Assembly (NCBI GenBank): GCA_027485815.1 | Contig: JAIXQE010000051.1 | Span: forward strand, 1-40,579 | Origin: Opitutaceae bacterium | GTDB taxonomy: Bacteria; Verrucomicrobiota; Verrucomicrobiia; Opitutales; Opitutaceae | Reading direction: 5' to 3' | Length of the DNA: 40,579 nucleotides | Part shown: positions 142 to 17,515 of the stretch, piece by piece | Layout: each line of letters begins with the position of its first letter | Position numbering within the stretch: position 1 is the first letter of the stretch | The notes under the pieces: generated by a model | Told to the model about the DNA's origin: nothing | What the model saw: the letters and a program-made list of their open reading frames with translations, nothing else | Databases searched by the model: none | Made by a program: the position numbers and the translations under genes

Positions 142-798
142 TCAAGCCGCGGCCGTCGCGGCGGCGGCCTGACGGCGCCGACGGTAGACCGCGTAGCCCA
201 GACCCAGGGCGCCGGCGATGGCGGCGTAGGTGGAGGGTTCGGGGACGACGGAGTAGTTGTAGGTGCCAAGCGCAATATCCGACCCTGAACTGGAGATCCC
301 AAAAACCGTGCCGCCGTCGATGGAGCTGGACGGCATCTTGCTGGAGAAGCTTGAGGCAAATTCGATCACCAACGGAGCAGTACCCGGATTGGACACCGGA
401 TTGAGAAACGCCGGAGAACCCGAAGAGAAAGTCATGGTGCCCTGTTGAAGAGTTGAGATGTTGAGATCGCGCCAGTTGACGCCATCAGTCCAGGCAGAGT
501 TCATCGAGGAGCCAGTGCTCGCGGTAGCCTGGATCGATCCCGTACTGGACTGCGTTGGCAGCTGCGCGTTCGCCGTCAGGTTACTGCCGGAGGGGAAAAA
601 CGAACCGAAGAGTATGCCATACTCAGCTAAGAACGTGGTGGAGCCGTTCTGACCACTCGCGGAAGCGTTAGTCGGCGTGATCGTCAGCTTATAGTTCGAC
701 GGATTGTATTGCAGGTTGAACAACGTCTGCGCGCCAGCGGAGCTGGCGCCGAGGGCAAGCAAGCCGAGGACGGCGAGGCGGCGGAGGGAACGATTCAT
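142..798 (-). CDS. PEP-CTERM sorting domain protein
   Basis: A 218-residue exported protein. It begins with a Sec signal peptide (about residues 1-23, ending in SAGAQ). It ends with an exosortase sorting signal: a PEP motif at residues 186-188, a hydrophobic helix, and a YRRRR basic cluster at about 205-209. An alanine-rich tail of nine residues follows the arginines, longer than usual. The middle is Ser/Thr/Asn/Gly-rich with no recognisable catalytic domain, as is common for such cargo. Members of this class are exported and processed at the inner membrane by an exosortase; none is encoded here. The middle of the gene is visibly less GC-rich than its neighbours. The receiver gene ends 57 bp upstream on the same strand, so co-transcription is possible. 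Its specific role is unknown. Confidence 0.9.
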   Translation of the reverse strand: MNRSLRRLAVLGLLALGASSAGAQTLFNLQYNPSNYKLTITPTNASASGQNGSTTFLAEYGILFGSFFPSGSNLTANAQLPTQSSTGSIQATASTGSSMNSAWTDGVNWRDLNISTLQQGTMTFSSGSPAFLNPVSNPGTAPLVIEFASSFSSKMPSSSIDGGTVFGISSSGSDIALGTYNYSVVPEPSTYAAIAGALGLGYAVYRRRRQAAAATAAA

Positions 799-4964: not shown

Positions 4965-6302
4965 TCACGGATCGACCGGCACGCCCTCGGCGCGCAGGCG
5001 CTGGAGCTTGTACGTGAGGGCGCGGCGGCTGATCGCGAGCTCGCGGGCCGTCTCGGTGCGGTTGAAGCGATTCTTCCGGAGGGTCCGCAGGATCGCCTCC
5101 CGCTCGATCTCCTCGAGGCGCTGCAGGTCGCGCGGGGCCTCGCCCGCGGGCGCGGCGGCGGCCAAGATCCGGGACGGCAGGTGCTCGGGCAGCACGACCT
5201 CCCCGCGGGACAACAGGGCGGCGCGCTCCATTGCGTTGCGCAGTTCGCGGACGTTGCCCGGCCAGGGATAGGCCTGCAGGGCCGCCGCCACGGAGGACGA
5301 GAACCGCGGCTGCTGGCGGGAGAACAGGGCGCTGAAGTGGCTCGCCAACGGCAGGATGTCCTCGGGGCGCTCCCGCAGGGGCGGGACGTGGATTTCCATC
5401 CCGCTGAGCCGGTAATACAGATCCTCCCGGAAGCGTCCCGCGGCGATCTCGGCGGCCAGATCCCGGCTGGTCGCCACGAGGAGGCGGGCGCGCGAACGGA
5501 CGTCCCGCGTGCCGCCCACCCGGCGAAAGACCCCCTCATTGAGCAGCCGCAGCAGCCGGCTCTGGAGCGCGGCCGGCCACTCGGCGATCTCGTCCAGGAA
5601 CAGGCTCCCCGTCTCCGCCTGTTCCAGCCGCCCCGTGCGCACGAGCCCGCCCGGCAATTCCTGGCCGAAGAGCTCGGCCTCCAATTGGGCCTCCGGCACC
5701 GCGACGCAGCCCACCTTCACGAGGGGGCCCGCCGCGCGGTTGCTCCACCGGTGGATCAACGACGCCACCACTTCCTTCCCCGCCCCGCTCTCCCCGGAGA
5801 GCAGCGCGCGGGAGTCGGACCCGGCGATCGCCGCCGCATCGCGGCACACCGCCCGCATCAGGGGACTGGCCACCACCACATCCGCCGGCAAGGGAGGGAC
5901 GCCCCCATCCGGCGGCGGGGGCGCGCCCCCCTGCACCGCCAGCCGCACCGAGGCCATCAGCTCGTCGAGGTCGATCGGCTTGGCCAGATAGTTGAGGGCC
6001 CCGTCCCGCATCGCCGCCACCGCGCTCCGCACGTCCGCGAACGCCGTGACCAGCAGCACCGGGAGCCGGGGGTGCTGTTCACGCACCCGGCGGAGCGTCT
6101 CCAGCCCCGACATCCCGGGCATCCGCACGTCCGTGATCAGCAGCGCACACGGTTCCCGCCCGAGCAGCTCCAACGCCGCCGCGCCGGACTCCGCGCCCCG
6201 CGTGCGAAAACCCTGCCGGCGCAAGAAGGTCTCCAGCAGGTCACGCTGGTCGGGATCATCATCGACGATGAGGATCCGCGGGGACTCCGGCTCGGTTCTC
6301 AT
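4965..6302 (-). CDS. NtrC-family response regulator lacking the GAFTGA loop
   Basis: A 445-residue protein with receiver, AAA+ and Fis-type HTH domains. Receiver: residues 7-125, acidic DDD at 14-16, phosphoacceptor D58, Lys K108. AAA+: Walker A GESGAGKE (170-177; the usual Thr is Ala), Walker B LFLDE (234-238), arginine-finger region FREDLYYRL (291-299) and PWPGNVREL (346-354). Fis HTH: about 405-436. Between ELFG (210-213) and LFLDE, where NtrC proteins carry GAFTGA to contact sigma-54, there is only QELPGGLVRTGRLEQAETGS, several residues too short and without GAFTGA. The ATG at 6302 overlaps the kinase stop codon by 4 nt (ATGA), so the pair is translationally coupled. It probably does not activate sigma-54; it may act on sigma-70 promoters, as TyrR-like relatives do. 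Confidence 0.93.
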   Translation of the reverse strand: MRTEPESPRILIVDDDPDQRDLLETFLRRQGFRTRGAESGAAALELLGREPCALLITDVRMPGMSGLETLRRVREQHPRLPVLLVTAFADVRSAVAAMRDGALNYLAKPIDLDELMASVRLAVQGGAPPPPDGGVPPLPADVVVASPLMRAVCRDAAAIAGSDSRALLSGESGAGKEVVASLIHRWSNRAAGPLVKVGCVAVPEAQLEAELFGQELPGGLVRTGRLEQAETGSLFLDEIAEWPAALQSRLLRLLNEGVFRRVGGTRDVRSRARLLVATSRDLAAEIAAGRFREDLYYRLSGMEIHVPPLRERPEDILPLASHFSALFSRQQPRFSSSVAAALQAYPWPGNVRELRNAMERAALLSRGEVVLPEHLPSRILAAAAPAGEAPRDLQRLEEIEREAILRTLRKNRFNRTETARELAISRRALTYKLQRLRAEGVPVDP

Positions 6303-7747
6303 CCGGTGGAGGCGGGCCGGAGCGGCGCCAGCCGCAACACGGCTCCCCGCGGCGCGTGGGCCCCGCACGTGGCTTCCCAGCCATGGGCGAGCGCGATCTG
6401 GCGGACGACCGCCAGGCCGAGCCCCACGCCATCCTTCCGCCGGGTGACGTAGGGCTTGAAAATCTCCTCCCGTTCGGTCTCCGGCACGCCGCGGCCGTCA
6501 TCCCGCACCTCCAGCGCCACCTCGCCTCCGGCGCCGGTCACGGCCGCCACCTCTACCCGCCCGCCCGGCTCCACCGCCTGGATCGCGTTGAGCACCAGAT
6601 TGAACAACGCCTGCCGCAGCAGGGCCTCATCGGCCGCCACCCGCACCGGCGCCGCCGGCAGGACGAGCGTGACCCGCTTCTCCTCCAAGTCGGGACCCAG
6701 GGTGCGGCCGACGTCCGCGGCGAGGGCTGCGAGGTCAACCGGACCGAGCACTGGCTGGCGGGGCTTGGCGTAATCGATGAACTGGTTGAGCTGGACCGTC
6801 ACCCGGTCGGCCTCCTCCAGGATCGCGGCCGCGTGGGCCCGCCACTGCGGGTCGGCGGCGGGGTCCATCGACACCAACTGGGCGTGGCCGCGGATCAGGT
6901 TGAGCGGGTTGCGGGTTTCGTGCGCGAGTCCCGCGGCGGCGAGATTCATCTGGGCGAGGTGCCCATTCATCTCGCCCGCCTTGAGCAGCCGCAGCTGCAG
7001 CTCGTCATTCCGGCGCCGGTTGCGCCAAGCGAGGCCGGAGACCACCGCGACCCCCAGCCCCATCGCCCCCACCAGGGCCCGCAGCAGGAAGTCCCCCCGC
7101 ACCGCCCGGCGCAGCTCCGCGGTGGACAGCGTGATCACGAGGCTGTGGACCCCCTGGGTGCGCAGGAGCGCCTCGTACTCCCCCTGCTCCATCCAGGCGG
7201 GCCGGCCGAACGTGAACCGGGGCGAGATCGGGGCCGCGCCCTCCCCATTGGGCCGGGCGACCGGCGTCCGCGCGGCCTTCGGCATCCGCTGCCCGCTCAC
7301 CACCACCGCCGCCGGCAACGGCCGCTCCTCGCCCGTCCCGCCCGCCTGGCCCAGGTCCATCAGGTTGAGGAGCACCAGTTCCTCGGCCCGCCAATGCACG
7401 CTGCGCGCCCGGAGCGCCTCCGGGGAGAGGTCGATCGGCCGGCCGGCGCTCGCGATGGTCTCGCCCGTCGGGCCGAGCAGCGCCAGGCCCTCGAGGTCCC
7501 CGGGATGAATCAGCGCCTGCAGCGTGGTCTCGATCCGCTCGCGGGCCACCAGCAGGCCGAAGCGCCGCTGCGACCGGACGATGATGCCGAGCGTCGACGT
7601 GATGTCGCGGCCGCGGTTCACCAACGCCTGCGCGGCGGCCGCCTCGAACCGACGGTGTTCCCCCCACTGCCAGCCAAAGAGCCCCGTCACGCCGGCGCAC
7701 AGCGCGGCGAGCAGGCCGAAACGGCGGTTGAGGAGCCGGGCGGGCAT
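6299..7747 (-). CDS. Membrane sensor histidine kinase
   Basis: 482 residues. An N-terminal membrane segment (about 10-26) and a second at about 221-240 flank an extracytoplasmic region of roughly 190 residues without a domain I recognise. The kinase core has the H-box LAHETRNPLN with phosphoacceptor H276, an N-box LFNLVLNAIQAV (381-392), a G1 box DDGRGVP (416-422), an F-box EIFKPYVTRR and a G2 box GVGLGLAVV (440-448). This is the ZraS/AtoS-like class that partners NtrC-type regulators, and the regulator gene overlaps its stop codon. It starts 87 bp after the secretin gene on the same strand, with a stem-loop between, so it may be partly co-transcribed with the secretion operon and respond to envelope state (inference). 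Confidence 0.93.
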   Translation of the reverse strand: MPARLLNRRFGLLAALCAGVTGLFGWQWGEHRRFEAAAAQALVNRGRDITSTLGIIVRSQRRFGLLVARERIETTLQALIHPGDLEGLALLGPTGETIASAGRPIDLSPEALRARSVHWRAEELVLLNLMDLGQAGGTGEERPLPAAVVVSGQRMPKAARTPVARPNGEGAAPISPRFTFGRPAWMEQGEYEALLRTQGVHSLVITLSTAELRRAVRGDFLLRALVGAMGLGVAVVSGLAWRNRRRNDELQLRLLKAGEMNGHLAQMNLAAAGLAHETRNPLNLIRGHAQLVSMDPAADPQWRAHAAAILEEADRVTVQLNQFIDYAKPRQPVLGPVDLAALAADVGRTLGPDLEEKRVTLVLPAAPVRVAADEALLRQALFNLVLNAIQAVEPGGRVEVAAVTGAGGEVALEVRDDGRGVPETEREEIFKPYVTRRKDGVGLGLAVVRQIALAHGWEATCGAHAPRGAVLRLAPLRPASTG

Positions 7748-7834: not shown

Positions 7835-9010
7835 TCAGCGAGTCGCGCCCGCGTCGGGTTTGCCCAGCGCCCGATCGAGTCCGTGCTCCTCGAACGCCTG
7901 GCCGGACATCTCCAGCTTGGCGCGCTCGCGGTCCGTGGTCGCGGAGAGGTCCTCCGGCGTGCGGATCACGTGCGGCGTAAGGAAGATCAGCAGCTCCGTC
8001 TTCACGTCCGTCTTCTGCTTCCGCTTGAAGGCGAGGCCCACCAGCGGGATATCCCCGAGGATCGGCACCTTGCTGTCGCGGTCGCCGAGCTGCGAGGAGA
8101 TGAGCCCGCCGATCACGATCGTCTTGTCGCTGGGCGTGACGACCACCGTGTCCGCCGAGCGCTTGTCGATGACCGGCGAGCTGACGTTGTTGCCGATCGG
8201 GATCGTGGTCGCGCTGAGCGAGGAGATCTCCGGGGAAACGATCATCTCGACCAGCCCCTCCTGCGTGATGAAGGGCGTCACCCGCAGGATGATGCCCACG
8301 TCCTGGTACTGGACGGTGTTGATGGTGGTGTTGGTCTGGTCGCTGACCCGCGAGTTGGTGATGAGCGGGATCGATTGCCCCACCATGATGGTCGCCTGCT
8401 GGTTGTTGCGCGTGAGCACCGAGGGCCGGGAGAGGATCTCGGTCTTGGTCACCGCGGAGAGGGCGCGGAGCGTGGCCGTCACGTCCTGGCCCAAAATGCG
8501 GTAGAACGCGCCGTACTGGGTGCCATCGGCGAGGGCGTCGGCCACCCCGAAGCGGGTGGTGGCGATCCCGCGGGGCTCGCCCTTGACCGCGAGCGTGCCG
8601 TTGAAGACGCCCTCCGCGCCGAGGTCGACGCCCTTGTCGTGGGTGACCTGGACGAAGACGACGTTGATCAGCACCTGCGGCTTAGGCTGGTCGAGGCTGG
8701 CGATGATGGTGCGGATGTTCTCGTTGGTCTCCTCGTCGGTGACCACGATCAGGCGGCGGGTCTGGAGGTCGCTGGTGATCATCGCCTCCCCGACCATCGT
8801 GGAGTTCGTGTACTGGCGGGTGGAGCCGGCCGAGCCGCCGCCTCCTCCGCCGCCGGTGGTGGCGCGGGAGGTGGTGCCCGACATCGTCGAGGGCCGGGGC
8901 GTGCTGGAGGTGGCGGGCCGGGCGCCGCCGGTGCTCGGCGCCTGGGCGGCGTGAACGAGTCCGGAAAGCACCAGGGCCAGGGCGGCCGGAAGCAGGGGGA
9001 AAAGTTTCAT
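7835..9010 (-). CDS. gspD: Secretin C-terminal part (half N3 plus pore domain)
   Basis: 391 residues. It has its own Sec signal peptide (1-22, ending HAAQA), then a Ser/Thr/Gly-rich linker with a run of seven glycines (about 25-70). Residues 75-115 (ITSDLQTRRLIVVTDEE..., DQPKPQVLI) correspond to the second half of a secretin N3 domain. The secretin barrel domain follows, with ILSRPSVLTRNNQQATIMVGQ (192-212), the distal VIGGLISSQ (299-307) and the hallmark VPILGDIPLVGLAF (315-328). The protein ends near residue 391 with no recognisable S-domain. Missing N0-N2 are supplied by the gene 20 bp upstream. It should form the outer-membrane pore of the secretion system encoded upstream. Confidence 0.93.
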   Translation of the reverse strand: MKLFPLLPAALALVLSGLVHAAQAPSTGGARPATSSTPRPSTMSGTTSRATTGGGGGGGSAGSTRQYTNSTMVGEAMITSDLQTRRLIVVTDEETNENIRTIIASLDQPKPQVLINVVFVQVTHDKGVDLGAEGVFNGTLAVKGEPRGIATTRFGVADALADGTQYGAFYRILGQDVTATLRALSAVTKTEILSRPSVLTRNNQQATIMVGQSIPLITNSRVSDQTNTTINTVQYQDVGIILRVTPFITQEGLVEMIVSPEISSLSATTIPIGNNVSSPVIDKRSADTVVVTPSDKTIVIGGLISSQLGDRDSKVPILGDIPLVGLAFKRKQKTDVKTELLIFLTPHVIRTPEDLSATTDRERAKLEMSGQAFEEHGLDRALGKPDAGATR

Positions 9011-9030
9011 GAGGAGGTGGAGCGGAGGGT

Positions 9031-10266
9031 TCAGCGGACCCCGCGGGTGCCGAGGGTGATGTTGGCGCCGGTGGCCTGGGTATTCGCGGACGCGCGGGTC
9101 GTGAGCGGATCGACCTCCTGGGAACCGGTGGTGCGCACGTTGCTCCCTTGGAACAGGTTCCGCAGCACGCTTTCCACCTGCTTCACGTCGCCGTGCTCCA
9201 GCGAGTAGACGAACACCTTCTGCTTGCGCGCGGTGCTGGCATCGAGCTGCCGGATGATGCCCTCGACATCCTCGAGGCTTTCCTTGGAGGCGCTGACGAT
9301 CACCGAATACGTGCGGGGATCAGCCACCGCGACCACGGGCGTGCCGCGGGAGGAGCCGCCGCTCGAGCGCGAACCGCGGCTGGACGAGCTGCTGGAGCCC
9401 CGACCGCCGGGACCGCTGCCGCCCCGGGCCGCCGCCATCGCCGCGAGCGCCGCCCCCGGCCCCCCGCCGAACCCGGGGAAGCCCCCGAAACCTGGGGTCT
9501 GCGGGGCCCCGGAGCGGGCGCCGGACTGACCGCCGCCGAAGATGTTGGTGATGAGCGCCGCCATCTCCTGTGGGTCGGAATTCTTCAGCTGGAAGACCCG
9601 CATCGAGGCGACGGAGCCGGCGGACCCGTCGAGGGCGGAGAGCAGCTCGACGATGTGCCGGACGTTGCTCTGGGTGTCCGTCACTACCAGCGAGTTGCTG
9701 TCGACGTTCGCCGTGATGGTCGCCGAGTTGGGCAGGAGGGTCGCGAGGTCCGAGGCCGCCTGGGTGGCATCGATCCGCTCGAGCGGGATGATCTGCATCA
9801 CCATCTCCGCGTTGTCGGGGATCTGGCGCGGGTCATTGCCGGTGCGGATCGGGATGGCCCGCTTGCGCGCGTCCTCCTTGGAACTCACGACCAAGGTGCG
9901 CCCCTTGAGGGTGGTAGTATAACCGGACTTGTTGATGGCCAGATTGAGCAACTGGACCGCCTCGGTGCGGGAGACCGGCTGGGCGCTCCACATGTCGACG
10001 TTCCCGCGGACCGGGGTCTCGAGGACGATCACGAAGCCCGCGGCCTCGCTGAGGTAATTGAGCACCGTCTCGAGCGGGGCCCCGCGGAAATTGAACCGGA
10101 GCCCGGCGGAAGTGTCGCGCGCCGGACGCTCGGGCGCGGTGGGGGCGGCCTCCGGGGCCCGCGGCGTCTCCCCGGGCGCGGGCGCAGCCGGGGCTTGGGC
10201 GTGCAGGAGGGCTCCGCCCGACAAGGTCAGGCTGAGGAGCAGGGGCAGGATGGGTTGGGTGTTCAT
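9031..10266 (-). CDS. gspD: Secretin N-terminal part (N0-N1-N2 plus half N3)
   Basis: 411 residues with a Sec signal peptide (1-24). Domains: N0 at about 55-130 (LRFNFRGAPLETVLNYLSE), N1 at about 155-215, and N2 at about 222-345, interrupted by a Gly/Ser-rich insertion (246-310). Residues 349-373 (VFVYSLEHGDVKQVESVLRNLFQG) are the first strand and helix of an N3 domain. The chain then trails off in a Thr/Ala-rich tail and stops. The rest of N3 and the pore domain are encoded by the next gene, after a 20-bp gap. Because the second protein has a complete signal peptide, this is gene fission, not a frameshift. Its start overlaps the stop codon of the GspC-like gene (ATGA). It presumably forms the periplasmic vestibule and contacts the GspC-like protein. 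Confidence 0.92.
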   Translation of the reverse strand: MNTQPILPLLLSLTLSGGALLHAQAPAAPAPGETPRAPEAAPTAPERPARDTSAGLRFNFRGAPLETVLNYLSEAAGFVIVLETPVRGNVDMWSAQPVSRTEAVQLLNLAINKSGYTTTLKGRTLVVSSKEDARKRAIPIRTGNDPRQIPDNAEMVMQIIPLERIDATQAASDLATLLPNSATITANVDSNSLVVTDTQSNVRHIVELLSALDGSAGSVASMRVFQLKNSDPQEMAALITNIFGGGQSGARSGAPQTPGFGGFPGFGGGPGAALAAMAAARGGSGPGGRGSSSSSSRGSRSSGGSSRGTPVVAVADPRTYSVIVSASKESLEDVEGIIRQLDASTARKQKVFVYSLEHGDVKQVESVLRNLFQGSNVRTTGSQEVDPLTTRASANTQATGANITLGTRGVR

Positions 10267-10847
10267 TCTTTAAGCTGTTTCTCGCGTTGCTTCATCAGGC
10301 GTTTGAGGACTTCGGAGGCGTTCGCCGGCACTTCCACCGGGGCCGCCTCGGGGCGGGAACGGACTTCCGGGACCGGGGCGGCGGAGGCGGTCCACTCACC
10401 GCCCTCGACCCGCGTCAGGCGTTGCGCGACCGCGAGGGTGTAGGTGCGTTCGCCGGCGCGGAGCTCCACCCCGGCGGGGGTCACCGCGACCACGCTGAAG
10501 TCACCCAGGCGGCCCCCCAACGCCGCCTCGCCGCGCAGGCGCGGATCGGCGCTGTGGAACACGGCCGCAGGGTCGGCGCCGAAGCCCACCACGCCGACGA
10601 GGGCGACCTCCTCGGTCCGGACGGGCTTTTCCTCGGGGGCGGACCGGTTCCGCGCGGTACGGTTGGGGTTGAAGATGTTGCGCTCGGTGACGAGCGCGAA
10701 GGCCTCGAGGCTACCGGCCGGAGCGGTCGATGCCGCCGCCGGGGCCGGAGTGGCGGCCGGAGCCGCCTCAGAGCCTCGCCGGCGTTCCGCGGCCTGGATG
10801 CCCACGGCCAACGCGGCCAGCAACGCGCAAAGGGAAATGCGGTTCAT
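10263..10847 (-). CDS. GspC/PulC-like HR-domain protein
   Basis: 194 residues. An N-terminal hydrophobic segment (about 5-19) acts as signal peptide or anchor. A Pro/Ala-rich linker follows, then an HR-type beta domain at about 47-140 opening with FALVTERNIFNPNRT and including VALVGVVGFGAD and LRAGERTYTLAV. In type II systems GspC links the inner-membrane platform to the secretin N0 domain. The position directly before the secretin N-part, with a 4-nt overlap, supports that role. There is no PDZ domain; the C-terminus ends in a charged helix (ASEVLKRLMKQREKQLKE), so it is shorter than classical GspC. The assignment rests on context and a short domain. Confidence 0.7.
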   Translation of the reverse strand: MNRISLCALLAALAVGIQAAERRRGSEAAPAATPAPAAASTAPAGSLEAFALVTERNIFNPNRTARNRSAPEEKPVRTEEVALVGVVGFGADPAAVFHSADPRLRGEAALGGRLGDFSVVAVTPAGVELRAGERTYTLAVAQRLTRVEGGEWTASAAPVPEVRSRPEAAPVEVPANASEVLKRLMKQREKQLKE

Positions 10848-11392
10848 CGCCGACCCTCCAGCGGCGCCAGCCGCAACCCGCTCACCAGCAGGCCGAGGGA
10901 GAGCTTGCCCCCGGACTCATCCCGCGTGTTGAGCTCCAGGGAATCGATCCGCAGCGCGAGGGGTGACTTCTCGACCTCGTGCAGGAACCGCACGATCGCG
11001 GGCAAGGGACCGGTGACGTCCACCCGGCATTCGAGCAGCGAATACTGGCTGGTGGAGCCCCGCTTCCATTGCGGCTTGATCGAGGCCACCTCCACCCCGC
11101 CGGCGCGGCCCCAGCGGTCGAAGGCGGTCAGCAGGTCCTGCTCCGCCTTGGCGGAATCCGCGGGCAGCGCCTGCCCTTGCATCTCCCGCCAGAGCCCGCG
11201 CGTCCGCTCGCCGCGGGCGACGGTCGATTCGCCCTCGGCCACGAGCTTGCCCAGCCGGGCAATCTCCGCGCTGCGGGCCTGCCAGGCGCGGGTCAGGGGG
11301 CTGAGCACGAGGCTGTCCAGCACCAGCAGGCCCAGCGCGACGCCGGTCAGGATCAGCAGCCAGCGTTGTCGATCCAGGGGGGGCTTCGTCAT
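10844..11392 (-). CDS. PilO/GspM-like inner-membrane platform protein
   Basis: 182 residues: a short cytoplasmic start, one membrane helix (about 11-30), a coiled-coil stretch (about 35-70), and a ferredoxin-like periplasmic domain. The latter includes the PilO-style segment YSLLECRVDVTGPLPAIVRFLHEVEKSPLALRI, given here only as a reading of residues about 117-150. PilO pairs with PilN in type IV pilus platforms, and GspM with GspL in type II systems. It overlaps its upstream neighbour (the PilM-PilN fusion) and downstream GspC-like gene by 4 nt each, indicating a stoichiometric set. Confidence 0.8.
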   Translation of the reverse strand: MTKPPLDRQRWLLILTGVALGLLVLDSLVLSPLTRAWQARSAEIARLGKLVAEGESTVARGERTRGLWREMQGQALPADSAKAEQDLLTAFDRWGRAGGVEVASIKPQWKRGSTSQYSLLECRVDVTGPLPAIVRFLHEVEKSPLALRIDSLELNTRDESGGKLSLGLLVSGLRLAPLEGRR

Positions 11393-12783
11393 GGCGTGGG
11401 GGCTCCGCTCCAGCGGAAGTTGAAGGTGAACTGGGCCGGGGTCTTGCCCCGGATCTGCTCGATCTTGACCGCCTGCACCTCCCGCGACTGGCGGAGCAGG
11501 TCCTGCGTGCGCAGGAGCGAGGCGTTGTCGCGGGCGGTGCCGGAGACGGTCACGTTAGTCTGCCCGTGGATCTCGAAGGACTTGGCGGTGACGGCCCCCG
11601 TTTCCGGGAAGCATTCGGTCACCTTGCGCAGGATCGAAAGGTTGCGGAACGAGGTGTCGTACCAGGAGCGGTATTCGCGGATCCGGGATTGGACGGTCTC
11701 CAGCTCCTTGACCGTCGGGGCCATCGTCTCCCAGCGGGAGCGGAGGGACCACAGGCGGTATTCCTGCCAGCCGAAGCCGATGGCCGCCAGGCCGAGCAGG
11801 CCCGCCACCGCCGCGCCGGCCGTGGCGAGGCGCCGGGAACTGTACCGGGCGGCAAGCTGCGCCCAGCGGCTGGGACGCGGCGGCAGGAACTCGAGGGCCT
11901 TTCCGGTCCCGGCGGACCGCGCCAAGGCCAAGCGCTCGACCAACTCCTCGCCGGAAACGCGGCCCGGCGCCGCCGCGACCACCTCGAGGCGGGCCTCGGC
12001 CGCCCACGCCTCCACCGCCGTCGCGAGCGCCGCCACCAGGGCCGGCTCGCCGTGCAGCGCGAGGCGCCGGAGCGCCGGCCGGACCGTCTCCGGCACCTGC
12101 TGCCAGGTGATCCGCAGCTCCCGCAGCAGGGCCGCGGAATGCAACACCCGCTCGCCCGCCTCCGACTCGATCGTCGCCTCGAGGGCGCGCCACGACACCA
12201 CCGCCCCCTGCAGCCCGACGAGCAGGACGGCCCCGTCCCCCTCGAGCCACAGGGAGATCTGGCCCTCGGCCGCCGTCCCCAGCGCCCCGGGCAGCGCCGG
12301 CAACGCCAGGGTGAAGCCCGCGGGACGGAGCCCCGCGGCGCGCAGCACCCGGTCCACCTTCTCCAACTGCGCCCGCGCCACCGCGAGCAGGGTGACCCGC
12401 CGCTCGCCCTCCGCCTCCCAGCCGGAGCGCACGATCTGCAGCTCCTCGGGCGCGCTCGGGAAGCCGCGCTCCGCGGCCAGCTGCAGGAAACCGTCCAGAT
12501 CATCGCCGGCCAAGCCCGCGGGAATCGCCACCGGAAGGGTCATCACCCACGCGGGCGGCAGCGCGACCACGACCTGCCGCTCCGCCACCCCCGCCGCCTC
12601 CAGCTGGTTGCGGATCTCCCGCCCGACGAGGTCGGGTTCGGGATGGAGGAGGTCGAGCGTCAGCGGCGCGCTGAACACGCGGACCTCGGGCGGCGCGGAC
12701 TTCCCGCGGCGGACCAGCGCGGCGCGCAGGTGCCCCGGCTCGAAGGCCAGGACCAAAAAGGCAGGGGGCGGGCGGTGGCTCAT
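11389..12783 (-). CDS. PilM-PilN fusion (GspL-like)
   Basis: 464 residues. The N-terminal 300 have the layout of an actin-like PilM/GspL cytoplasmic domain, including VVVALPPAWVMTLPV (71-85) and the shuttle motif LEFLPPRP near 297-304, a PilN-type hallmark. A single membrane helix (about 319-338) follows, then a coiled coil (350-390) and a PilN/GspL-like ferredoxin fold (about 400-460). One protein thus covers the PilM and PilN roles, as GspL does: it couples the ATPase GspE to the periplasmic platform. The gene sits between gspK and the PilO-like gene with ATGA overlaps on both sides. Confidence 0.82.
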   Translation of the reverse strand: MSHRPPPAFLVLAFEPGHLRAALVRRGKSAPPEVRVFSAPLTLDLLHPEPDLVGREIRNQLEAAGVAERQVVVALPPAWVMTLPVAIPAGLAGDDLDGFLQLAAERGFPSAPEELQIVRSGWEAEGERRVTLLAVARAQLEKVDRVLRAAGLRPAGFTLALPALPGALGTAAEGQISLWLEGDGAVLLVGLQGAVVSWRALEATIESEAGERVLHSAALLRELRITWQQVPETVRPALRRLALHGEPALVAALATAVEAWAAEARLEVVAAAPGRVSGEELVERLALARSAGTGKALEFLPPRPSRWAQLAARYSSRRLATAGAAVAGLLGLAAIGFGWQEYRLWSLRSRWETMAPTVKELETVQSRIREYRSWYDTSFRNLSILRKVTECFPETGAVTAKSFEIHGQTNVTVSGTARDNASLLRTQDLLRQSREVQAVKIEQIRGKTPAQFTFNFRWSGAPTP

Positions 12784-14117
12784 AGGCGATTGCGGGTTTC
12801 CCGCAGCAGTTGCCGGGCGCTCGGGCCGAGGGCCCAGCCGCTGGCCGCGAGATCCTGATGGTAGACGATCCGGGGAGTGGAACGGCTCAGGTCAAAGACG
12901 GTGCGGGTCCGGGCATAGCCCCGGCCCCCGCGCGCCACGGCGACCACGTCCGCGGTGAACTGGTACGAACGATCGGTGATGTACGGCCCGGCCCGGGTGA
13001 TCGCGCCGCGGCTGAGCACCTGCGTCAGCCAGGCGAAGGATCCGCGCACCGCGTCCGGATTCGCCAGCCGGTAGGCCACCAGCGCCGGGGCATTCTCCGG
13101 CCCGATCCCCGGAATGCAGCCCAACACCACCTCGCAGGCGGTGTTGACGTTGATCCGCCCGGTCACGGTCGACCCGGAACTGATCGTGACCTCATCCCGG
13201 ATCTGCGCCCACTCCTCGGCGGTGAACCGCCCCTCGACCATCAGTTCCGCCGGGCTGCGCAACTCCTGGCCCCCAAGGGCGCGCACGATCTCCTGGGCGC
13301 GGCCGCCCCCCAGCCGGCCAAGGAGCTGCAGGAAGGCCGGCGACTGCCGGGCCTGCGCCGTCGCGACGTTCAGCCGCCGCGATCCATCCGGCCGGGTGTT
13401 GGGCTCGCGGCTGTAGACGGTCACGTACTCGAGGAGGCCCGGCTGGATCAGCCCGTCCCCGTTGTCTCGTGGCGCCGACTGCTCCCCGTCGTTTTCATTC
13501 TCATCGAGGATGCCGTTCCGGTTCACATCCTCGCCCAACAGAATGTCCAGCGAGGCCCCGTACACCAACCGCAGCTCGTCGACAGTCTCGAATGGCGCTC
13601 CCTTGTTCAACCGCGGGGGATCGAGTAGACCATAGGTGCTGTCGCCGCCCCCGCCCTGGCTGCGGCTCCGCCACGCCACGATCGCATCGACCAGCTCGGG
13701 CGTGATGCCCGGGAGCAGCTCGAGCATCGAGCGCGGCGCGGAGTTGAGGTTGAGCTTCGCGGCCTCGTCGACGAGGCGGAAGACCGGCTCGTCCCCGGGC
13801 CGCTGGTCCGGGTCCCGCCCGAGGAACCAGAAGGCCGCCTCCCCGACCGCGAGGGCCTCGGCGCGGTAATCGTCCGGATGCGGCACGACGCCGTTCAGGC
13901 CGAACTGGCCCAGCACGAAGGCCGCGTAACGGGTTCCCGCGAGCGCCGCCTGCCGGGCCTCGGTCTCCATCACCTGGTTGTCCGCCGCCCGCAGCTCCGC
14001 CGACATCTGGTCCGCGAAGTACACGGCCAAGGCCACGAGTCCCAGGCAGACCCAGAGGACGATGATCATCACGGAGCCGCGGCGGCGCCCGTTCCGGGGG
14101 GAAAGTCCGCGGTTCAT
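12780..14117 (-). CDS. gspK: Type II secretion minor pseudopilin GspK
   Basis: 445 residues. The N-terminus is prepilin-like (RRRGSVMIIVLWVCLGLVALAV) with the large globular body typical of GspK, the tip pseudopilin. Signatures are LNLNSAPRSMLELLPGI (122-138) and NKGAPFETVDELRLV (171-185). A loop at D197-E208 (D-V-N-R-N-G-I-L-D-E-N-E) fits the 12-residue EF-hand pattern exactly, and DNGDGLI lies just after (218-224), consistent with the calcium binding known for GspK. The usual Glu at position +5 is replaced, as is normal for GspK. The gene overlaps gspJ upstream and the PilM-PilN gene downstream by 4 nt. Confidence 0.92.
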   Translation of the reverse strand: MNRGLSPRNGRRRGSVMIIVLWVCLGLVALAVYFADQMSAELRAADNQVMETEARQAALAGTRYAAFVLGQFGLNGVVPHPDDYRAEALAVGEAAFWFLGRDPDQRPGDEPVFRLVDEAAKLNLNSAPRSMLELLPGITPELVDAIVAWRSRSQGGGGDSTYGLLDPPRLNKGAPFETVDELRLVYGASLDILLGEDVNRNGILDENENDGEQSAPRDNGDGLIQPGLLEYVTVYSREPNTRPDGSRRLNVATAQARQSPAFLQLLGRLGGGRAQEIVRALGGQELRSPAELMVEGRFTAEEWAQIRDEVTISSGSTVTGRINVNTACEVVLGCIPGIGPENAPALVAYRLANPDAVRGSFAWLTQVLSRGAITRAGPYITDRSYQFTADVVAVARGGRGYARTRTVFDLSRSTPRIVYHQDLAASGWALGPSARQLLRETRNRL

Positions 14118-14824
14118 GGCAGCGCGCCTTCCTCTTCCTGCGCCAGCGTGGCGGTGGTCTTCACCAGCACCGGCACGACCACCTCATAGGTCCCCGCCGG
14201 CGCTCCCCCCGCCTCCGCCGCGAGGGCAAAGCTGAAGCGCAGCGCCCCGGGCAGGGTCTCGGTGGCCGTCGAATCCCAGGTGTCCGTCCAAGCCAGCCCG
14301 TCGAAGTAGGCGAGGCTCGCGGATTCCACCCCCCCGAGCACCAGTTCCTCCTCCGGCAGGACCTCCTGAACGGGGAGCAGATTGCGGGTGACCGCGCGGA
14401 TCAGGTCCCGGCCGGCTCCGCCCGTGGCCGAAGGCACGAGGAAATAGGCGACCCGCTGCTGGTCCGCGAACGGCGTCCACCCGTCGATGCGGCCGGAGTT
14501 GGTGCTCAGGTCGGGGGTCACCCGCTCCCCGATCGCATCCGCCATCGAGCCGGAGAACGGGCTCGTTTGCAGGCCCTGCGCCAGGGCGGTCTCGCTTCCG
14601 GGCAACATTAACCCGGCCAAATCGCGGCGCAAAATGCTCACCGCCCGCTGCACGCGCCGGTCCTGCTCGATCCGGGCGTGCGTGGTCTGATGGAGCCGTA
14701 ACGCCCCGAAATAACTGGTCTGGATCACGATCAGCACGACCGAGCCAACGACGATGCCGATGAGGAGCTCGAGGAGCGTGAAGCCCCCCGGGACGCGGCC
14801 CGTCCCTGGAAACTTCCGCCGCAT
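14114..14824 (-). CDS. gspJ: Type II secretion minor pseudopilin GspJ
   Basis: 236 residues from the ATG at 14824. This start gives a short leader of 14 residues ending in PGG before FTLLELLIGIVVGSVVL, a canonical class III prepilin site with Glu at +5; a longer in-frame start adds only Gly/Arg-rich sequence. After the N-terminal helix, the chain has the GspJ-style RVQRAVSILRRDLAGLMLPG. GspJ forms the pseudopilus tip complex with GspI and GspK. The start shares one base with the stop of gspI (TGATG) and its own stop overlaps gspK (ATGA). Confidence 0.88.
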   Translation of the reverse strand: MRRKFPGTGRVPGGFTLLELLIGIVVGSVVLIVIQTSYFGALRLHQTTHARIEQDRRVQRAVSILRRDLAGLMLPGSETALAQGLQTSPFSGSMADAIGERVTPDLSTNSGRIDGWTPFADQQRVAYFLVPSATGGAGRDLIRAVTRNLLPVQEVLPEEELVLGGVESASLAYFDGLAWTDTWDSTATETLPGALRFSFALAAEAGGAPAGTYEVVVPVLVKTTATLAQEEEGALP

Positions 14825-15237
14825 CAGCCCTGCCCTCCCACCGCGTTTTCCGCCGTGCCCGTCGCCGGCAGGAGGGTCGCCAGCGCGATTTCCTGCGCCG
14901 CCCCGCGAATCGAGAAGGTCACGGTCACCGTCGCCTGCTGCAGGGCGTCCTCGGGCCAGTTCTCCAACCGCACCGACCACGGGTATTCGAACGGTCCCTC
15001 CTGGGCGACGCCGCTGGTGGCGCCGGTCGCGAGCTGGCCCTCGGCCAACAGCTCCCCCAGCACGCGCTCCCCCACCCGCATGGCGGCCGCCTTACGCCGG
15101 CCCAGCTCGCCGGCGCGGCTGGCCACGGCCATCGCCTCCATCGCCACCGGCACGACCAGCGCGATGAGCATCAGGGAGGCCAGCACCTCCACCAGCGTGA
15201 AGGCCCGCCGCGCGGAACGCCGTTCAGGGGCGCGCAT
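14824..15237 (-). CDS. gspI: Type II secretion minor pseudopilin GspI
   Basis: 137 residues from the ATG at 15237 (an ATG at 15255 is also possible). The leader is MRAPERRSARRA and the mature end FTLVEVLASLMLIAL. To keep Glu at +5, cleavage must follow Ala rather than the usual Gly. The body carries the GspI-like AMRVGERVLGELLAEGQ and ends after a beta-rich segment. It is a pseudopilus tip component. The start lies inside the end of gspH by 14 nt, so translation is probably coupled. Confidence 0.85.
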   Translation of the reverse strand: MRAPERRSARRAFTLVEVLASLMLIALVVPVAMEAMAVASRAGELGRRKAAAMRVGERVLGELLAEGQLATGATSGVAQEGPFEYPWSVRLENWPEDALQQATVTVTFSIRGAAQEIALATLLPATGTAENAVGGQG

Positions 15238-15796
15238 CGGGAGTCCGGATTTCATAGCCCAGCCGATTGGCCGTGAGCGCGATTTCGAGCGCGCCCCCAT
15301 CATCCTGGCGGAGCACCACCCGCGCCGGCGCCGCGGGATCAGGAAAACCATCGGGGTTGAAACGGATGGCCGGCCGGTCCGCGCTCAGGCCGAGCCGCTC
15401 GTCGTCCTGCTCGGAAACCACGCCCTCGAGCGCGACGGCCACCTCCACGCGCAGGCTCGGCTCGAGCGTGAATTCGAGGCGGCGCACCTCCCCGAGGCCG
15501 CCGAAACCCGCCGCCGGCTCCACCCCGTAGGTCGCGCGCACCGGATCGAACCAGACCACCACCGGCACCGCCTCGGCCGCCGCCTGGCTGCGCGCGTAAT
15601 GCAGGAGCGAGAGGACGCGCTGCGCCTCGCCGCTCAACGCGCGCCCCTTGAAGAAGGAGGCCATCCGCGGCGCCACCAGCGAAGCCACGGTCAGCAGCAG
15701 CACCATCACCACGATCAGCTCCACCAGCGTGAAGCCGCGGCGGCCCGCGGGGAACCGCGGGGAAGAGGCAGGGCGATCGTGGCGGCCGGGGCTCAT
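15224..15796 (-). CDS. gspH: Type II secretion minor pseudopilin GspH
   Basis: 190 residues. The leader of 21 residues ends in RRG, followed by FTLVELIVVMVLLLTVASLVAP with Glu at +5. The GspH/FimT style continues with GRALSGEAQRVLSLLHYARSQAAAEAVPVVV, here cited as the region at about residues 51-80. The C-terminal part is beta-rich (RFNPDGFPDP motif near 145). GspH is thought to link the tip complex to the major pseudopilin. The gene is 16 bp after gspG and overlaps gspI. Confidence 0.88.
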   Translation of the reverse strand: MSPGRHDRPASSPRFPAGRRGFTLVELIVVMVLLLTVASLVAPRMASFFKGRALSGEAQRVLSLLHYARSQAAAEAVPVVVWFDPVRATYGVEPAAGFGGLGEVRRLEFTLEPSLRVEVAVALEGVVSEQDDERLGLSADRPAIRFNPDGFPDPAAPARVVLRQDDGGALEIALTANRLGYEIRTPDARP

Positions 15797-15812
15797 CCCG
15801 CGGGCAAGCGGA

Positions 15813-16274
15813 TCAGTTCGCGGCCACGCGGCCGTTCACGATGTCATCGGCCGTGTTCGCCTGGCCATCGGGCCCGATCGAACGCAGGTCGTAGCCGGAG
15901 GAATTCACCCGGCCCGGAAACTCGTACAGGTAGGGGCGACCCCACGGATCGGCCGGGATCTCGCTCTTCAGGTAGGGCCCACGCCAGTTGGGCACGTCCG
16001 CCGGGGCGGCCACCAGCTGGTTCAAGCCATCCTGCCCCCGGGGATAACTGCCGGTATCCACCTCGAAGGCATCCAACGCCGTGCCGAAGGTCGAGATCTG
16101 GGTCTGCGCCGCCGTCACCCGCGCCTGCTCGGTGCGGCCGGTGAACTTCGGCAGCACCAGGGACGCCAGGATGCCGAGGATCACGAGCACCAGCAGCAGC
16201 TCGACGAGGGTGAAGGCGCCGCGACGGGCGCCCCGGAGGGCACGGGGGGGACGGGAGGTCATGGGTAAGGTCAT
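15813..16274 (-). CDS. gspG: Type II secretion major pseudopilin GspG
   Basis: 153 residues. The N-terminal helix FTLVELLLVLVILGILASLVLP is followed by the GspG signatures QARVTAAQTQIS, LDAFEVDTGSYP, PWGRPYLYEFPG and the C-terminal calcium-site segment SIGPDGQANTADDI. This protein polymerises into the pseudopilus. The leader ends ...RRGA; Glu at +5 requires cleavage after Ala20, not after the preceding Gly. The ATG at 16274 overlaps the gspF stop by 4 nt. A second in-frame ATG four codons later is a possible alternative start. Confidence 0.94.
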   Translation of the reverse strand: MTLPMTSRPPRALRGARRGAFTLVELLLVLVILGILASLVLPKFTGRTEQARVTAAQTQISTFGTALDAFEVDTGSYPRGQDGLNQLVAAPADVPNWRGPYLKSEIPADPWGRPYLYEFPGRVNSSGYDLRSIGPDGQANTADDIVNGRVAAN

Positions 16275-17515
16275 TTGATGTGGTCCTGCAGGGAGAAAAT
16301 GGGGATCACCATCCCGATGAAGATGGTGCCGATCAGCGCCGCGATGACGAAGAGCATCACCGGCTCCGCCAGGGCCACGACCGCCTTCAGCTGACGATCG
16401 AGGTCGCCCTCGGTGGTGTTGGCGATGCGCAGGAGCTCGGCGTCCAGCTTGCCGCTCTCCTCGGCCACGGAAATCATCTCGACGATCGCGCCCGGGAACA
16501 GGGCGCGGTTCTGGGCGAGGCTCTTGCCCAGCGCCTTGCCCTCTTTCACCCGGTCGATCGAGTCCGCGACCGCATCGACCAAAATCTGGTTGCCGATCGA
16601 GCGCCGCGCGACGTTGAGCGCGCTGATCAGGGGCACGCCCGCTCCCAGCAGGGTGCCGAGCATCCGGCAAAAGCGGGCCATCGCGAACTGGGCCAGCAAC
16701 GGCCCCAGCGTCGGCACGCGCAGGATCCAGCCCTCCCACGCCCGGCGGCCCCGCGGCGAGCGGAACCAGTGCCGCGCCGAGATGCCCGCCACCGCGAGGC
16801 CCGCCGCCAGGAACAATCCGTAGCCGCGCACGGCGTCGCTCACGCCTACGATCAGCTGGGTGATCAAGGGCAACTCCGCGTTGAAGCCTTGAAACACCAG
16901 CTGGAAGCGCGGAATGAAGAAGACCAGCAGGAAGATCAGCACACCCAGGGCCAGCACCAACAGGATCGCCGGGTACATCAGCGCCGTCGCCACCTTGCCC
17001 TTGAGCTCCTTCTCCCGGGCCTGAAAGTCCGCAATCTGGGCCAGGACGACGTCGAGGAACCCACCCGCCTCCCCCGCCTCGACCATCGCGACATACACCC
17101 GCGGGAACGTCTCCGGGGAGCGCGCCATCGCGTCCGACAGCGGCATCCCGTCGATCACGAGGTCGTGCAACTCCTTCCACTTGGCCTTCGCCGCCGGCTC
17201 GGCCGCCTCCCGCTGGATGATCACCAGGGCGCGGCTGAACGGCACCCCCGCGGCCATCAGGCTCGAGAGCAGCCGCGTGAAGTTCTCCAGGGTCCGCGCG
17301 GAGATCTTGTTTCCTCCGCCCAGCGACAGCCGCCGTCCCCAGCCCGCCCCCGCCTTGGCGCCGCCGGCCGCGGCCCCCGCCGCTTCGCCCAGCCGGACCG
17401 GCCGCAGCGCCTTGCCTTCCACCAGCCGCAACGCCTCCTGCCGGTTCGGGGCCTCGATCAGGCCTTCGACCGCCACGCCATCCGGCTGCAGGGCTTTGTA
17501 GGCGAATTGGGGCAT
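16271..17515 (-). CDS. gspF: Type II secretion inner-membrane protein GspF
   Basis: 414 residues, the usual size. It begins FAYKALQPDGVAVEG, followed by two homologous T2SSF domains (about 75-195 and 275-400). Each carries the helix pattern of FTRLLSSLMAAGVPFSRAL and FCRMLGTLLGAGVPLISAL. Three membrane segments are visible: about 175-197, 230-250 and 380-405. GspF is the polytopic platform protein on which the pseudopilus is assembled and which GspE drives. It follows gspE after 7 bp and overlaps gspG. Confidence 0.95.
   Translation of the reverse strand: MPQFAYKALQPDGVAVEGLIEAPNRQEALRLVEGKALRPVRLGEAAGAAAGGAKAGAGWGRRLSLGGGNKISARTLENFTRLLSSLMAAGVPFSRALVIIQREAAEPAAKAKWKELHDLVIDGMPLSDAMARSPETFPRVYVAMVEAGEAGGFLDVVLAQIADFQAREKELKGKVATALMYPAILLVLALGVLIFLLVFFIPRFQLVFQGFNAELPLITQLIVGVSDAVRGYGLFLAAGLAVAGISARHWFRSPRGRRAWEGWILRVPTLGPLLAQFAMARFCRMLGTLLGAGVPLISALNVARRSIGNQILVDAVADSIDRVKEGKALGKSLAQNRALFPGAIVEMISVAEESGKLDAELLRIANTTEGDLDRQLKAVVALAEPVMLFVIAALIGTIFIGMVIPIFSLQDHIK

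What the first reader, a model, noticed from the sequence alone, without database searches (positions are those of the whole stretch)
7835..10266. A secretin divided inside its N3 domain into two separately exported proteins
The first protein carries N0, N1, N2 and only the first strand-helix of N3 (to about residue 373). The second starts with its own signal peptide and a Gly/Ser-rich linker, then supplies the rest of N3 and the pore domain. Secretins are normally one chain. The break is not a frameshift: there is a clean stop, a 20-bp gap, a new start and a full signal peptide. The two halves must meet in the periplasm, perhaps by completing N3 between chains, giving a two-component gate.
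Basis: partly seen in the sequence, partly recalled or inferred. Interest (0 to 1): 0.72.

Follow-up and report, generated by a model that had tools for sequence, protein, structure and literature searches.

The report
Two-protein split GspD secretin
In a group of Verrucomicrobiota bacteria the outer-membrane channel of a type II protein-secretion machine is encoded as two separately exported proteins, cut in the middle of one folded domain, which probably rejoin outside the inner membrane; this channel is normally one protein.

Summary
D1 (9031-10266, minus) carries N0, N1, N2 and the first strand-helix of N3. D2 (7835-9010, minus) has its own signal-peptide-like start, a Gly/Ser linker, the rest of N3 and the pore. 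Against NCBI's GspD model they cover positions 1-294 and 248-598 of 600. The same break occurs in 104 of 104 non-redundant readable pairs: none fused, frame relation random (37/32/35), a signal-like D2 start in 103. The pair ends a conserved T2SS operon. It occurs, patchily, in the window's family (25 of 150 genomes) and in Pedosphaera/Limisphaera-type Verrucomicrobiota. Mean covariation between the two N3 halves matches that inside intact N1 and N2 and is reached by 0.18% of other D1 x D2 windows. A read-through tandem AlphaFold2 model folds one N3 from both pieces. Most likely this is a split GspD whose chains meet in the periplasm by completing N3 in trans; no physical proof exists. Split secretins are known (rhizobial RhcC1/RhcC2; mitochondrial GspD), so this is a new variant of a known kind. 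The genome also has a fused GspD-like protein beside its own GspE.

The parts
9031..10266 (-). D1: GspD N-terminal half, 411 aa, signal-peptide-like start (by eye); N0-N1-N2 and first half of N3
   Evidence: ORF; Pfam N0 and Secretin_N; TIGR02517 positions 1-294/600
9904..10101 (-). N0 domain of D1 (about aa 56-121)
   Evidence: PF21305 aa 58-121; VIA match of D1 model to GspD N0 structures 4jtm, 3oss
9619..9804 (-). N1 domain of D1 (about aa 155-216)
   Evidence: Secretin_N stretches and secondary structure of model
9235..9612 (-). N2 domain of D1 (about aa 219-344) with a Gly/Ser-rich insert (about aa 246-309)
   Evidence: Secretin_N aa 222-343; model
9136..9222 (-). N3a: first strand and helix of N3 (aa 349-377; KQKVFVY...QVE..LRNLFQ), strongly conserved
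   Evidence: alignment; tandem model
9034..9135 (-). D1 C-terminal tail (aa 378-411), partly conserved in the genus, low confidence in models
   Evidence: alignment; pLDDT
9011..9030 (-). 20-nt gap between D1 stop and D2 start; no Shine-Dalgarno-like motif here
7835..9010 (-). D2: pore half of GspD, 391 aa
   Evidence: ORF; PF00263 aa 183-350; TIGR02517 positions 248-598/600
8945..9010 (-). D2 signal peptide (about aa 1-22, inferred by hydropathy and an AxA-like end)
8792..8944 (-). Gly/Ser/Thr-rich linker of D2 (about aa 23-73)
   Evidence: alignment
8675..8791 (-). N3b: two strands and second helix of N3 (aa 74-112)
   Evidence: Secretin_N profile 31-69 at aa 74-112, sub-threshold
7955..8674 (-). 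Secretin pore region (about aa 113-352)
   Evidence: PF00263; phmmer to GspD structures
10263..10847 (-). GspC-like protein (194 aa), weak match to GspC_delta (21.2 bits, cut-off 150)
   Evidence: position recurs
10844..11392 (-). GspM-like (T2SSM_b, just over its cut-off)
11389..12783 (-). GspL-like (PilM/PilN-like, sub-threshold)
12780..14117 (-). GspK (T2SSK_1st over cut-off; NCBIfam GspK best match, under cut-off)
14114..16270 (-). pseudopilin genes (GspJ, I, H, G by order and FTLVE-like N-terminal motif; inferred, no family search run)
   Evidence: ORFs; H, I, J synteny
16271..17515 (-). GspF (T2SSF over cut-off; NCBIfam GspF best match, under cut-off)
17523..19235 (-). GspE (T2SSE over cut-off; NCBIfam GspE best match, under cut-off)
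6299..7747 (-). histidine kinase following D2
   Evidence: adjacency recurs in many loci
4965..6368 (-). response regulator with sigma-54 interaction domain

Best explanation
D1 and D2 are the two subunits of one T2SS secretin that descends from a single-chain GspD cut in the flexible loop between helix 1 and strand 2 of N3. Each half is exported through Sec by its own signal peptide (inferred). D1 forms the inner-membrane-facing N0-N1-N2 rings and should bind the GspC-like protein through N0 (inferred by homology). D2 forms the outer-membrane pore. They meet in the periplasm, where strand 1-helix 1 of D1 and strand 2-strand 3-helix 2 of D2 close one composite N3 domain per protomer. Shown here: the split, its conservation, its operon setting, and complementarity to GspD. 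Computational support only: the composite N3. Not shown: assembly, 1:1 stoichiometry, secretion function.
For: Complementary cover of TIGR02517, 1-294 and 248-598 of 600; the pair of genome G442, read by the search through two TAA stops, scores 425 bits, over the 351.35-bit GspD cut-off. Split in 104 of 104 non-redundant pairs, frames 37/32/35, signal-like D2 start 103 of 104. Operon E-F-H-I-J-K-L-M-C-D1-D2 recurs. The 40 D2 rows form one group, SH-aLRT 99, quick tree. N3a x N3b mean covariation 0.138 against 0.172 within N1 and 0.145 within N2; 0.18% (8) of 4536 other D1 x D2 windows reach it. Tandem AF2 model: N3 pieces at pLDDT 80-85, with a 61-residue match to one N domain of HofQ (2y3m, rmsd 2.1, Z 6.9, model 302..490) that spans both pieces. 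In D1 modelled alone the N3a strand is not formed, pLDDT 45-62.
Against: No physical evidence. AF2 has learned GspD folds, and the tandem is an artificial chain (stop read as W, spacer and D2 signal peptide retained). D1 alone was modelled with 32 rows against 120, and its N0 also lost confidence (48-67), so that contrast is confounded. Z 6.9 alone would be weak. Covariation windows overlap, effective sequence number is about 55, and by the other measure (share of pairs above z 2.5: 4.5%) 2.2% of windows reach N3a x N3b. The strongest single D1 x D2 pairs lie outside N3. D1-D2 distance correlation (r 0.90) is expected from co-inheritance alone. Two genomes carry an extra D1 with no D2 nearby, so D1 may have another role or partner. 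A fused GspD-like protein exists in the same genome.
Confidence: 0.75

Rival explanations
1. Sequencing error, recent frameshift or pseudogene of an ordinary gspD.
For: Adjacent halves in one operon; 30 frame-0 pairs have no stop in the gap beyond the D1 stop.
Against: Same break in 104 of 104 non-redundant pairs, random frame relation, new signal-like start, conserved D1 tail in the genus.
Confidence: 0.01
2. The halves do not join: D2 is a short secretin that works alone, and D1 is a separate ring or adaptor protein stacked below it without a shared domain.
For: Orphan D1 copies in two genomes; about 35-residue D1 tail and about 50-residue D2 linker could separate the pieces; phage pIV (7ofh), a shorter secretin, is among the structural matches.
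Against: N3a and N3b are both strongly conserved, covary like intact domains, and are predicted to fold together.
Confidence: 0.15
3. The split serves regulation of amounts: D1 and D2 are made at different levels or times (constitutive rhcC1 is reported in rhizobia) and join as one functional secretin. This is compatible with the main reading.
For: Separate starts; rhcC1 precedent (PMC3574062, PMC3973906 passages).
Against: Short gap (median 37 nt) in one operon; Shine-Dalgarno-like motifs before D2 are near background (22 of 102 against 275 of 1734 control windows), which hints at coupled translation.
Confidence: 0.2
4. Partial homologous gene replacement as in RhcC1/RhcC2: D2 came from another secretin type.
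For: D2 has its own signal-like start and linker.
Against: Best NCBIfam match of both halves is GspD; the halves abut inside one domain.
Confidence: 0.06

Closest known systems
Canonical T2SS secretin GspD (PulD, ExeD, EpsD, XcpQ; TIGR02517)
   Same: Domain order N0-N1-N2-N3-pore, T2SS operon, sequence and predicted fold.
   Different: Two separately encoded chains; break inside N3. In PulD residues 288-303 are unmodelled (PMC6882859 passage), just before position 308 from which D2 aligns, so the break seems to lie in an existing flexible loop; that the two numberings agree was not checked.
Rhizobial and P. syringae T3SS-2 split secretin RhcC1/RhcC2
   Same: One secretin function from two genes; N-terminal part separate from the pore.
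   Different: There the parts have distinct origins (T3SS-like N part, Tad-like pore with a BON domain) and the genes lie apart (PMC3459982, PMC3973906 passages; PMC4500985 whole text). Here both are GspD-like, adjacent, and the cut is within a domain.
Mitochondrial T2SS GspD / GspDN1-3 / GspDL
   Same: GspD split into several polypeptides, with GspDN2 and GspDN3 reported as the C- and N-terminal halves of an N domain (PMC8134430 passages).
   Different: Eukaryotic, N0 reported lacking, pieces very divergent. Here a bacterial operon keeps N0 and two chains. A direct sequence comparison was not made.
Amuc_1098-like and other secretins of the same genome
   Same: Pore domain.
   Different: Single chains; best matches Amuc_1098, PilQ, MshL, all under their cut-offs.

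Membership tests
T2SS secretin GspD | GspD-type N0 plus repeated N domains | tested here: met
   D1: PF21305 35.7 bits, Secretin_N 100.8 bits, both over cut-off
T2SS secretin GspD | Secretin pore domain | tested here: met
   D2: PF00263 160.5 bits
T2SS secretin GspD | TIGR02517 score over 351.35 bits | tested here: inconclusive
   D1 159.4, D2 240.3 separately, both under; the G442 pair read through two stops scores 425
T2SS secretin GspD | Encoded in a T2SS operon | tested here: met
   several partners are best matches under equivalog cut-offs
T2SS secretin GspD | Single polypeptide | tested here: not met
T2SS secretin GspD | Forms an outer-membrane oligomer and secretes through it | not testable with these tools
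   needs experiment
RhcC1/RhcC2-type split T3SS secretin | Pore half of Tad type with BON domain and separate origin | tested here: not met
   No BON match listed for D2 at E up to 0.01; best family GspD
RhcC1/RhcC2-type split T3SS secretin | T3SS gene neighbourhood | tested here: not met
   T2SS operon
Mitochondrial split GspD | N0 absent | tested here: not met
   N0 present in D1

The most novel reading that the evidence does not exclude
An obligate two-chain secretin with a composite N3 constriction ring in which closing N3 between an inner-membrane-bound D1 ring and an outer-membrane D2 pore is itself the assembly or gating step, and which lets one pore take alternative D1 adaptors (orphan D1 paralogues exist in two genomes).
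Probability: 0.2. Interest if true: 0.85.

Novelty: new variant of a known kind. Interest (0 to 1): 0.62.

Why it matters
An apparently old split inside a structural domain of a giant membrane channel gives a natural two-part system for asking how the periplasmic rings and outer-membrane pore of a secretin assemble and whether they can be uncoupled. It offers a bacterial parallel to the half-N-domain pieces reported for mitochondrial GspD. It could also hide these secretins from gene finders that demand a full-length GspD score: neither half of the window's pair reaches the NCBIfam cut-off.

Tried and rejected
Rejected: frameshift, readthrough or assembly error (all three frame relations, new signal-like starts). 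Rejected: the C32 secretin (465 aa) as a second split pair; it is MshL-like, with a GspE-like ATPase just downstream. Translational signals: Shine-Dalgarno-like motifs before D2 are close to background. Looking for a split-bearing genome with no other secretin failed: all 24 tested had 2 to 7 secretin matches, fragments included, and one search did not settle which of the others are true GspD. Spread beyond Verrucomicrobiota was not properly testable: one pattern-based scan of genome contigs, 108 relatives of 136 pattern matches, best 80 kept. The GspG query was out of frame by my mistake, so GspG synteny was not tested. In two rows (L140, L146) C is printed after D1 because D1 was placed by the start of its stop-to-stop frame. 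A direct comparison with RhcC1/RhcC2 or mitochondrial GspDN sequences was not made. Alignment columns of A4 in the linker and signal-peptide region are unreliable. VIA rows do not reach the D1 tail, which is barely tested.

Literature: searches (open-access library only; listings, each capped at 10 to 20 rows) showed no report of a split GspD in Verrucomicrobiota. A Verrucomicrobia symbiont paper lists GspD, without remark in the one passage seen (PMC8636102); another mentions a T2SS cluster (PMC13274419, passages).

Full report
What is in the window. On the minus strand an operon runs GspE (17523-19235), GspF (16271-17515), pseudopilin genes (inferred from order and N-terminal motif), GspK (12780-14117), GspL-like, GspM-like, a GspC-like protein (10263-10847), then D1 (9031-10266) and D2 (7835-9010), followed by a histidine kinase and a response regulator with a sigma-54 interaction domain. 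Several partner names are best matches that stay under NCBIfam equivalog cut-offs. D1 ends in TGA; after 20 nt D2 begins with ATG and a hydrophobic start, in a different frame. Pfam places N0 and N-domain repeats in D1 and the secretin pore in D2, with only the second half of one N domain at the start of D2 (profile 31-69 of 69, sub-threshold). NCBI's GspD model is covered 1-294 by D1 and 248-598 by D2.

It is not an error or a pseudogene. In the genus, 21 of 27 genomes have a strong D1 (best E under 1e-106); 20 can be read past its end and all 20 are split. Family sample of 150 genomes: 25 have a full D1. Order sample of 223: 4, all of the window's own family. Class sample of 335: 55 (best E under 1e-39). 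Phylum sample of 337: 9 (best E under 1e-50). These samples overlap, and the distribution is patchy. A scan of genome contigs gave 80 kept loci, all with Verrucomicrobiota labels except one short contig in a MAG labelled Rubrivivax; labels include Opitutaceae, Limisphaera and Pedosphaera. That the window's own unnamed family is Opitutaceae is my inference from these near relatives.

Of 183 loci examined, 153 had a strong D1 (over 150 bits). Five of those ran off the contig; in the other 148 D2 is a separate ORF and none is fused. Two of the 148 (L184, L191) have about 800 nt between D1 and D2, and one (L194) was first missed because its D2 frame is open far upstream. After removing D1 duplicates at 97% identity 104 pairs remain: frame relation 37/32/35, median gap 37 nt, D2 start ATG 102 and GTG 2, hydrophobic start 103 of 104. 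Irregular rows, not taken out before these counts: L128 (odd D1 end, overlapping D2 start) and L165 (D2 start not found). The signal-peptide calls rest on a hydropathy rule of mine, not on a trained predictor. Twenty-five further class loci: 22 with a separate D2 close by, 2 D1 without D2 (L235, L241), 1 truncated; these are not de-duplicated against the rest.

The 30 loci with only weak D1 similarity hold single-chain secretins. In a quick pore-region tree of 76 rows, 40 split rows form one group (SH-aLRT 99); 5 of 45 split rows were dropped because no full pore match was obtained. Thirty of the 31 fused rows fall on the other side of the deepest branch. E. coli GspD, one fused row (L106) and three other secretins of the own genome share the split side without being inside the split group, and several of these branches are long. 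D1 and D2 distances correlate at r 0.90 over 91 pairs, as co-inheritance alone would give. The order E-F-H-I-J-K-L-M-C-D1-D2 recurs in the named loci as far as contig ends and similarity allow (GspG was not validly tested). This suggests one split inherited with its T2SS operon; its age, and loss against transfer as the cause of the patchiness, were not resolved.

Do the halves complete N3? (1) Covariation over 91 pairs (effective number about 55): mean z of N3a x N3b 0.138, next to 0.172 for N1a x N1b and 0.145 for N2a x N2b. None of 57 other D1 windows against N3b and none of 68 pore windows against N3a reach it, and 8 (0.18%) of 4536 other, overlapping D1 x D2 windows do. By the share of pairs above z 2.5 (4.5%), 2.2% of windows reach it. 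High pairs include E365-S80, E365-R86, Q349-I88, F352-I88, S366-N96; I did not check them against coordinates. The strongest single D1 x D2 pairs are not in N3 (for example M157 with pore sites), which may be clade signal.

(2) AlphaFold2 on a natural read-through tandem from L137 (120 rows: 24 tandem, 49 D1, 47 D2; two D2 rows without the start motif dropped): N3 strand 1 and helix 1 at pLDDT 80-84, strands 2-3 and helix 2 at 84-85, overall mean 64.7, pTM 0.39. VIA aligns model 302..490 to residues 128..191 of HofQ (2y3m; 61 aligned, rmsd 2.1, Z 6.9). Since N3a and N3b are only about 25 and 33 residues and the stretch between them is low-confidence, both pieces must take part. It aligns 302..764 to GspD 5w68 (Z 16.2, 301 aligned, rmsd 8.2). 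The tool warns that Z under 8 alone is weak. Foldseek's best hit is PulD 6hcg. (3) D1 alone: the N3a strand is not formed, pLDDT 45-62, while N2 is at about 81-84. N0 also drops to 48-67 there, so the smaller alignment is part of the effect. These are predictions; AF2 has learned the family.

Why the break may be tolerated: in PulD residues 288-303 are unmodelled in the cryo-EM structure and N3 is called a constriction site (PMC6882859, passages). D2 aligns to the PulD sequence from 308, so the cut seems to fall in that flexible loop (numbering not cross-checked). By homology N0 binds the GspC HR domain (PMC3169554, passages), so D1 should be the part that contacts the inner-membrane complex; this is inference.

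Rival within the genome: PF00263 occurs five times. C30 encodes a full-length fused GspD-like protein of 704 aa (TIGR02517 258.8 bits, 3-596 of 600, under cut-off) directly beside a GspE. C76 encodes an Amuc_1098-like protein, C142 a PilQ/HofQ-like one, C32 an MshL-like one.

Known precedents: rhizobial split secretins, of mixed origin and separate location (PMC3574062, PMC3973906, PMC3459982 passages; PMC4500985 whole text), and mitochondrial GspD with half-N-domain proteins (PMC8134430 passages). The present case differs in keeping the GspD parts in two mostly adjacent genes with one intradomain cut. Hence 'new variant of a known kind'.

Noticed in passing
L235 (G513:C24) and L241 (G548:C12): Additional D1 paralogues with no D2 in the fetched stretch, in genomes that also have a normal pair (L089, L070); L235 lies beside a GspF-like gene on the other strand.
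   Followed up: partly
L079, L086, L091, L093 and similar: D1 of many class- and phylum-level loci gives a second, overlapping-profile D1 match, as if it had an extra N-domain copy, yet D2 again starts as a separate ORF.
   Followed up: no
L184, L191: About 800 nt lie between D1 and D2, room for an intervening gene.
   Followed up: no
G000:C30 (L200): Fused GspD-like protein (704 aa) directly beside a GspE; no other T2SS gene recognised by eye in the ORF list; fused relatives occur in the family and order.
   Followed up: partly
window 4965-7747: Histidine kinase and sigma-54-type regulator directly after D2, recurring next to the operon in many Opitutaceae loci, a possible regulator of this T2SS.
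   Followed up: partly
L118: 3.2-kb contig in a MAG labelled Rubrivivax carries a D1 99% identical to the window, probably mis-binned; several lake MAGs labelled Akkermansia muciniphila may also be misnamed.
   Followed up: no
G000:C142 (L198): PilQ/HofQ-like secretin of 591 aa beside a 2316-aa ORF with a signal-peptide-like start, function unclear.
   Followed up: no
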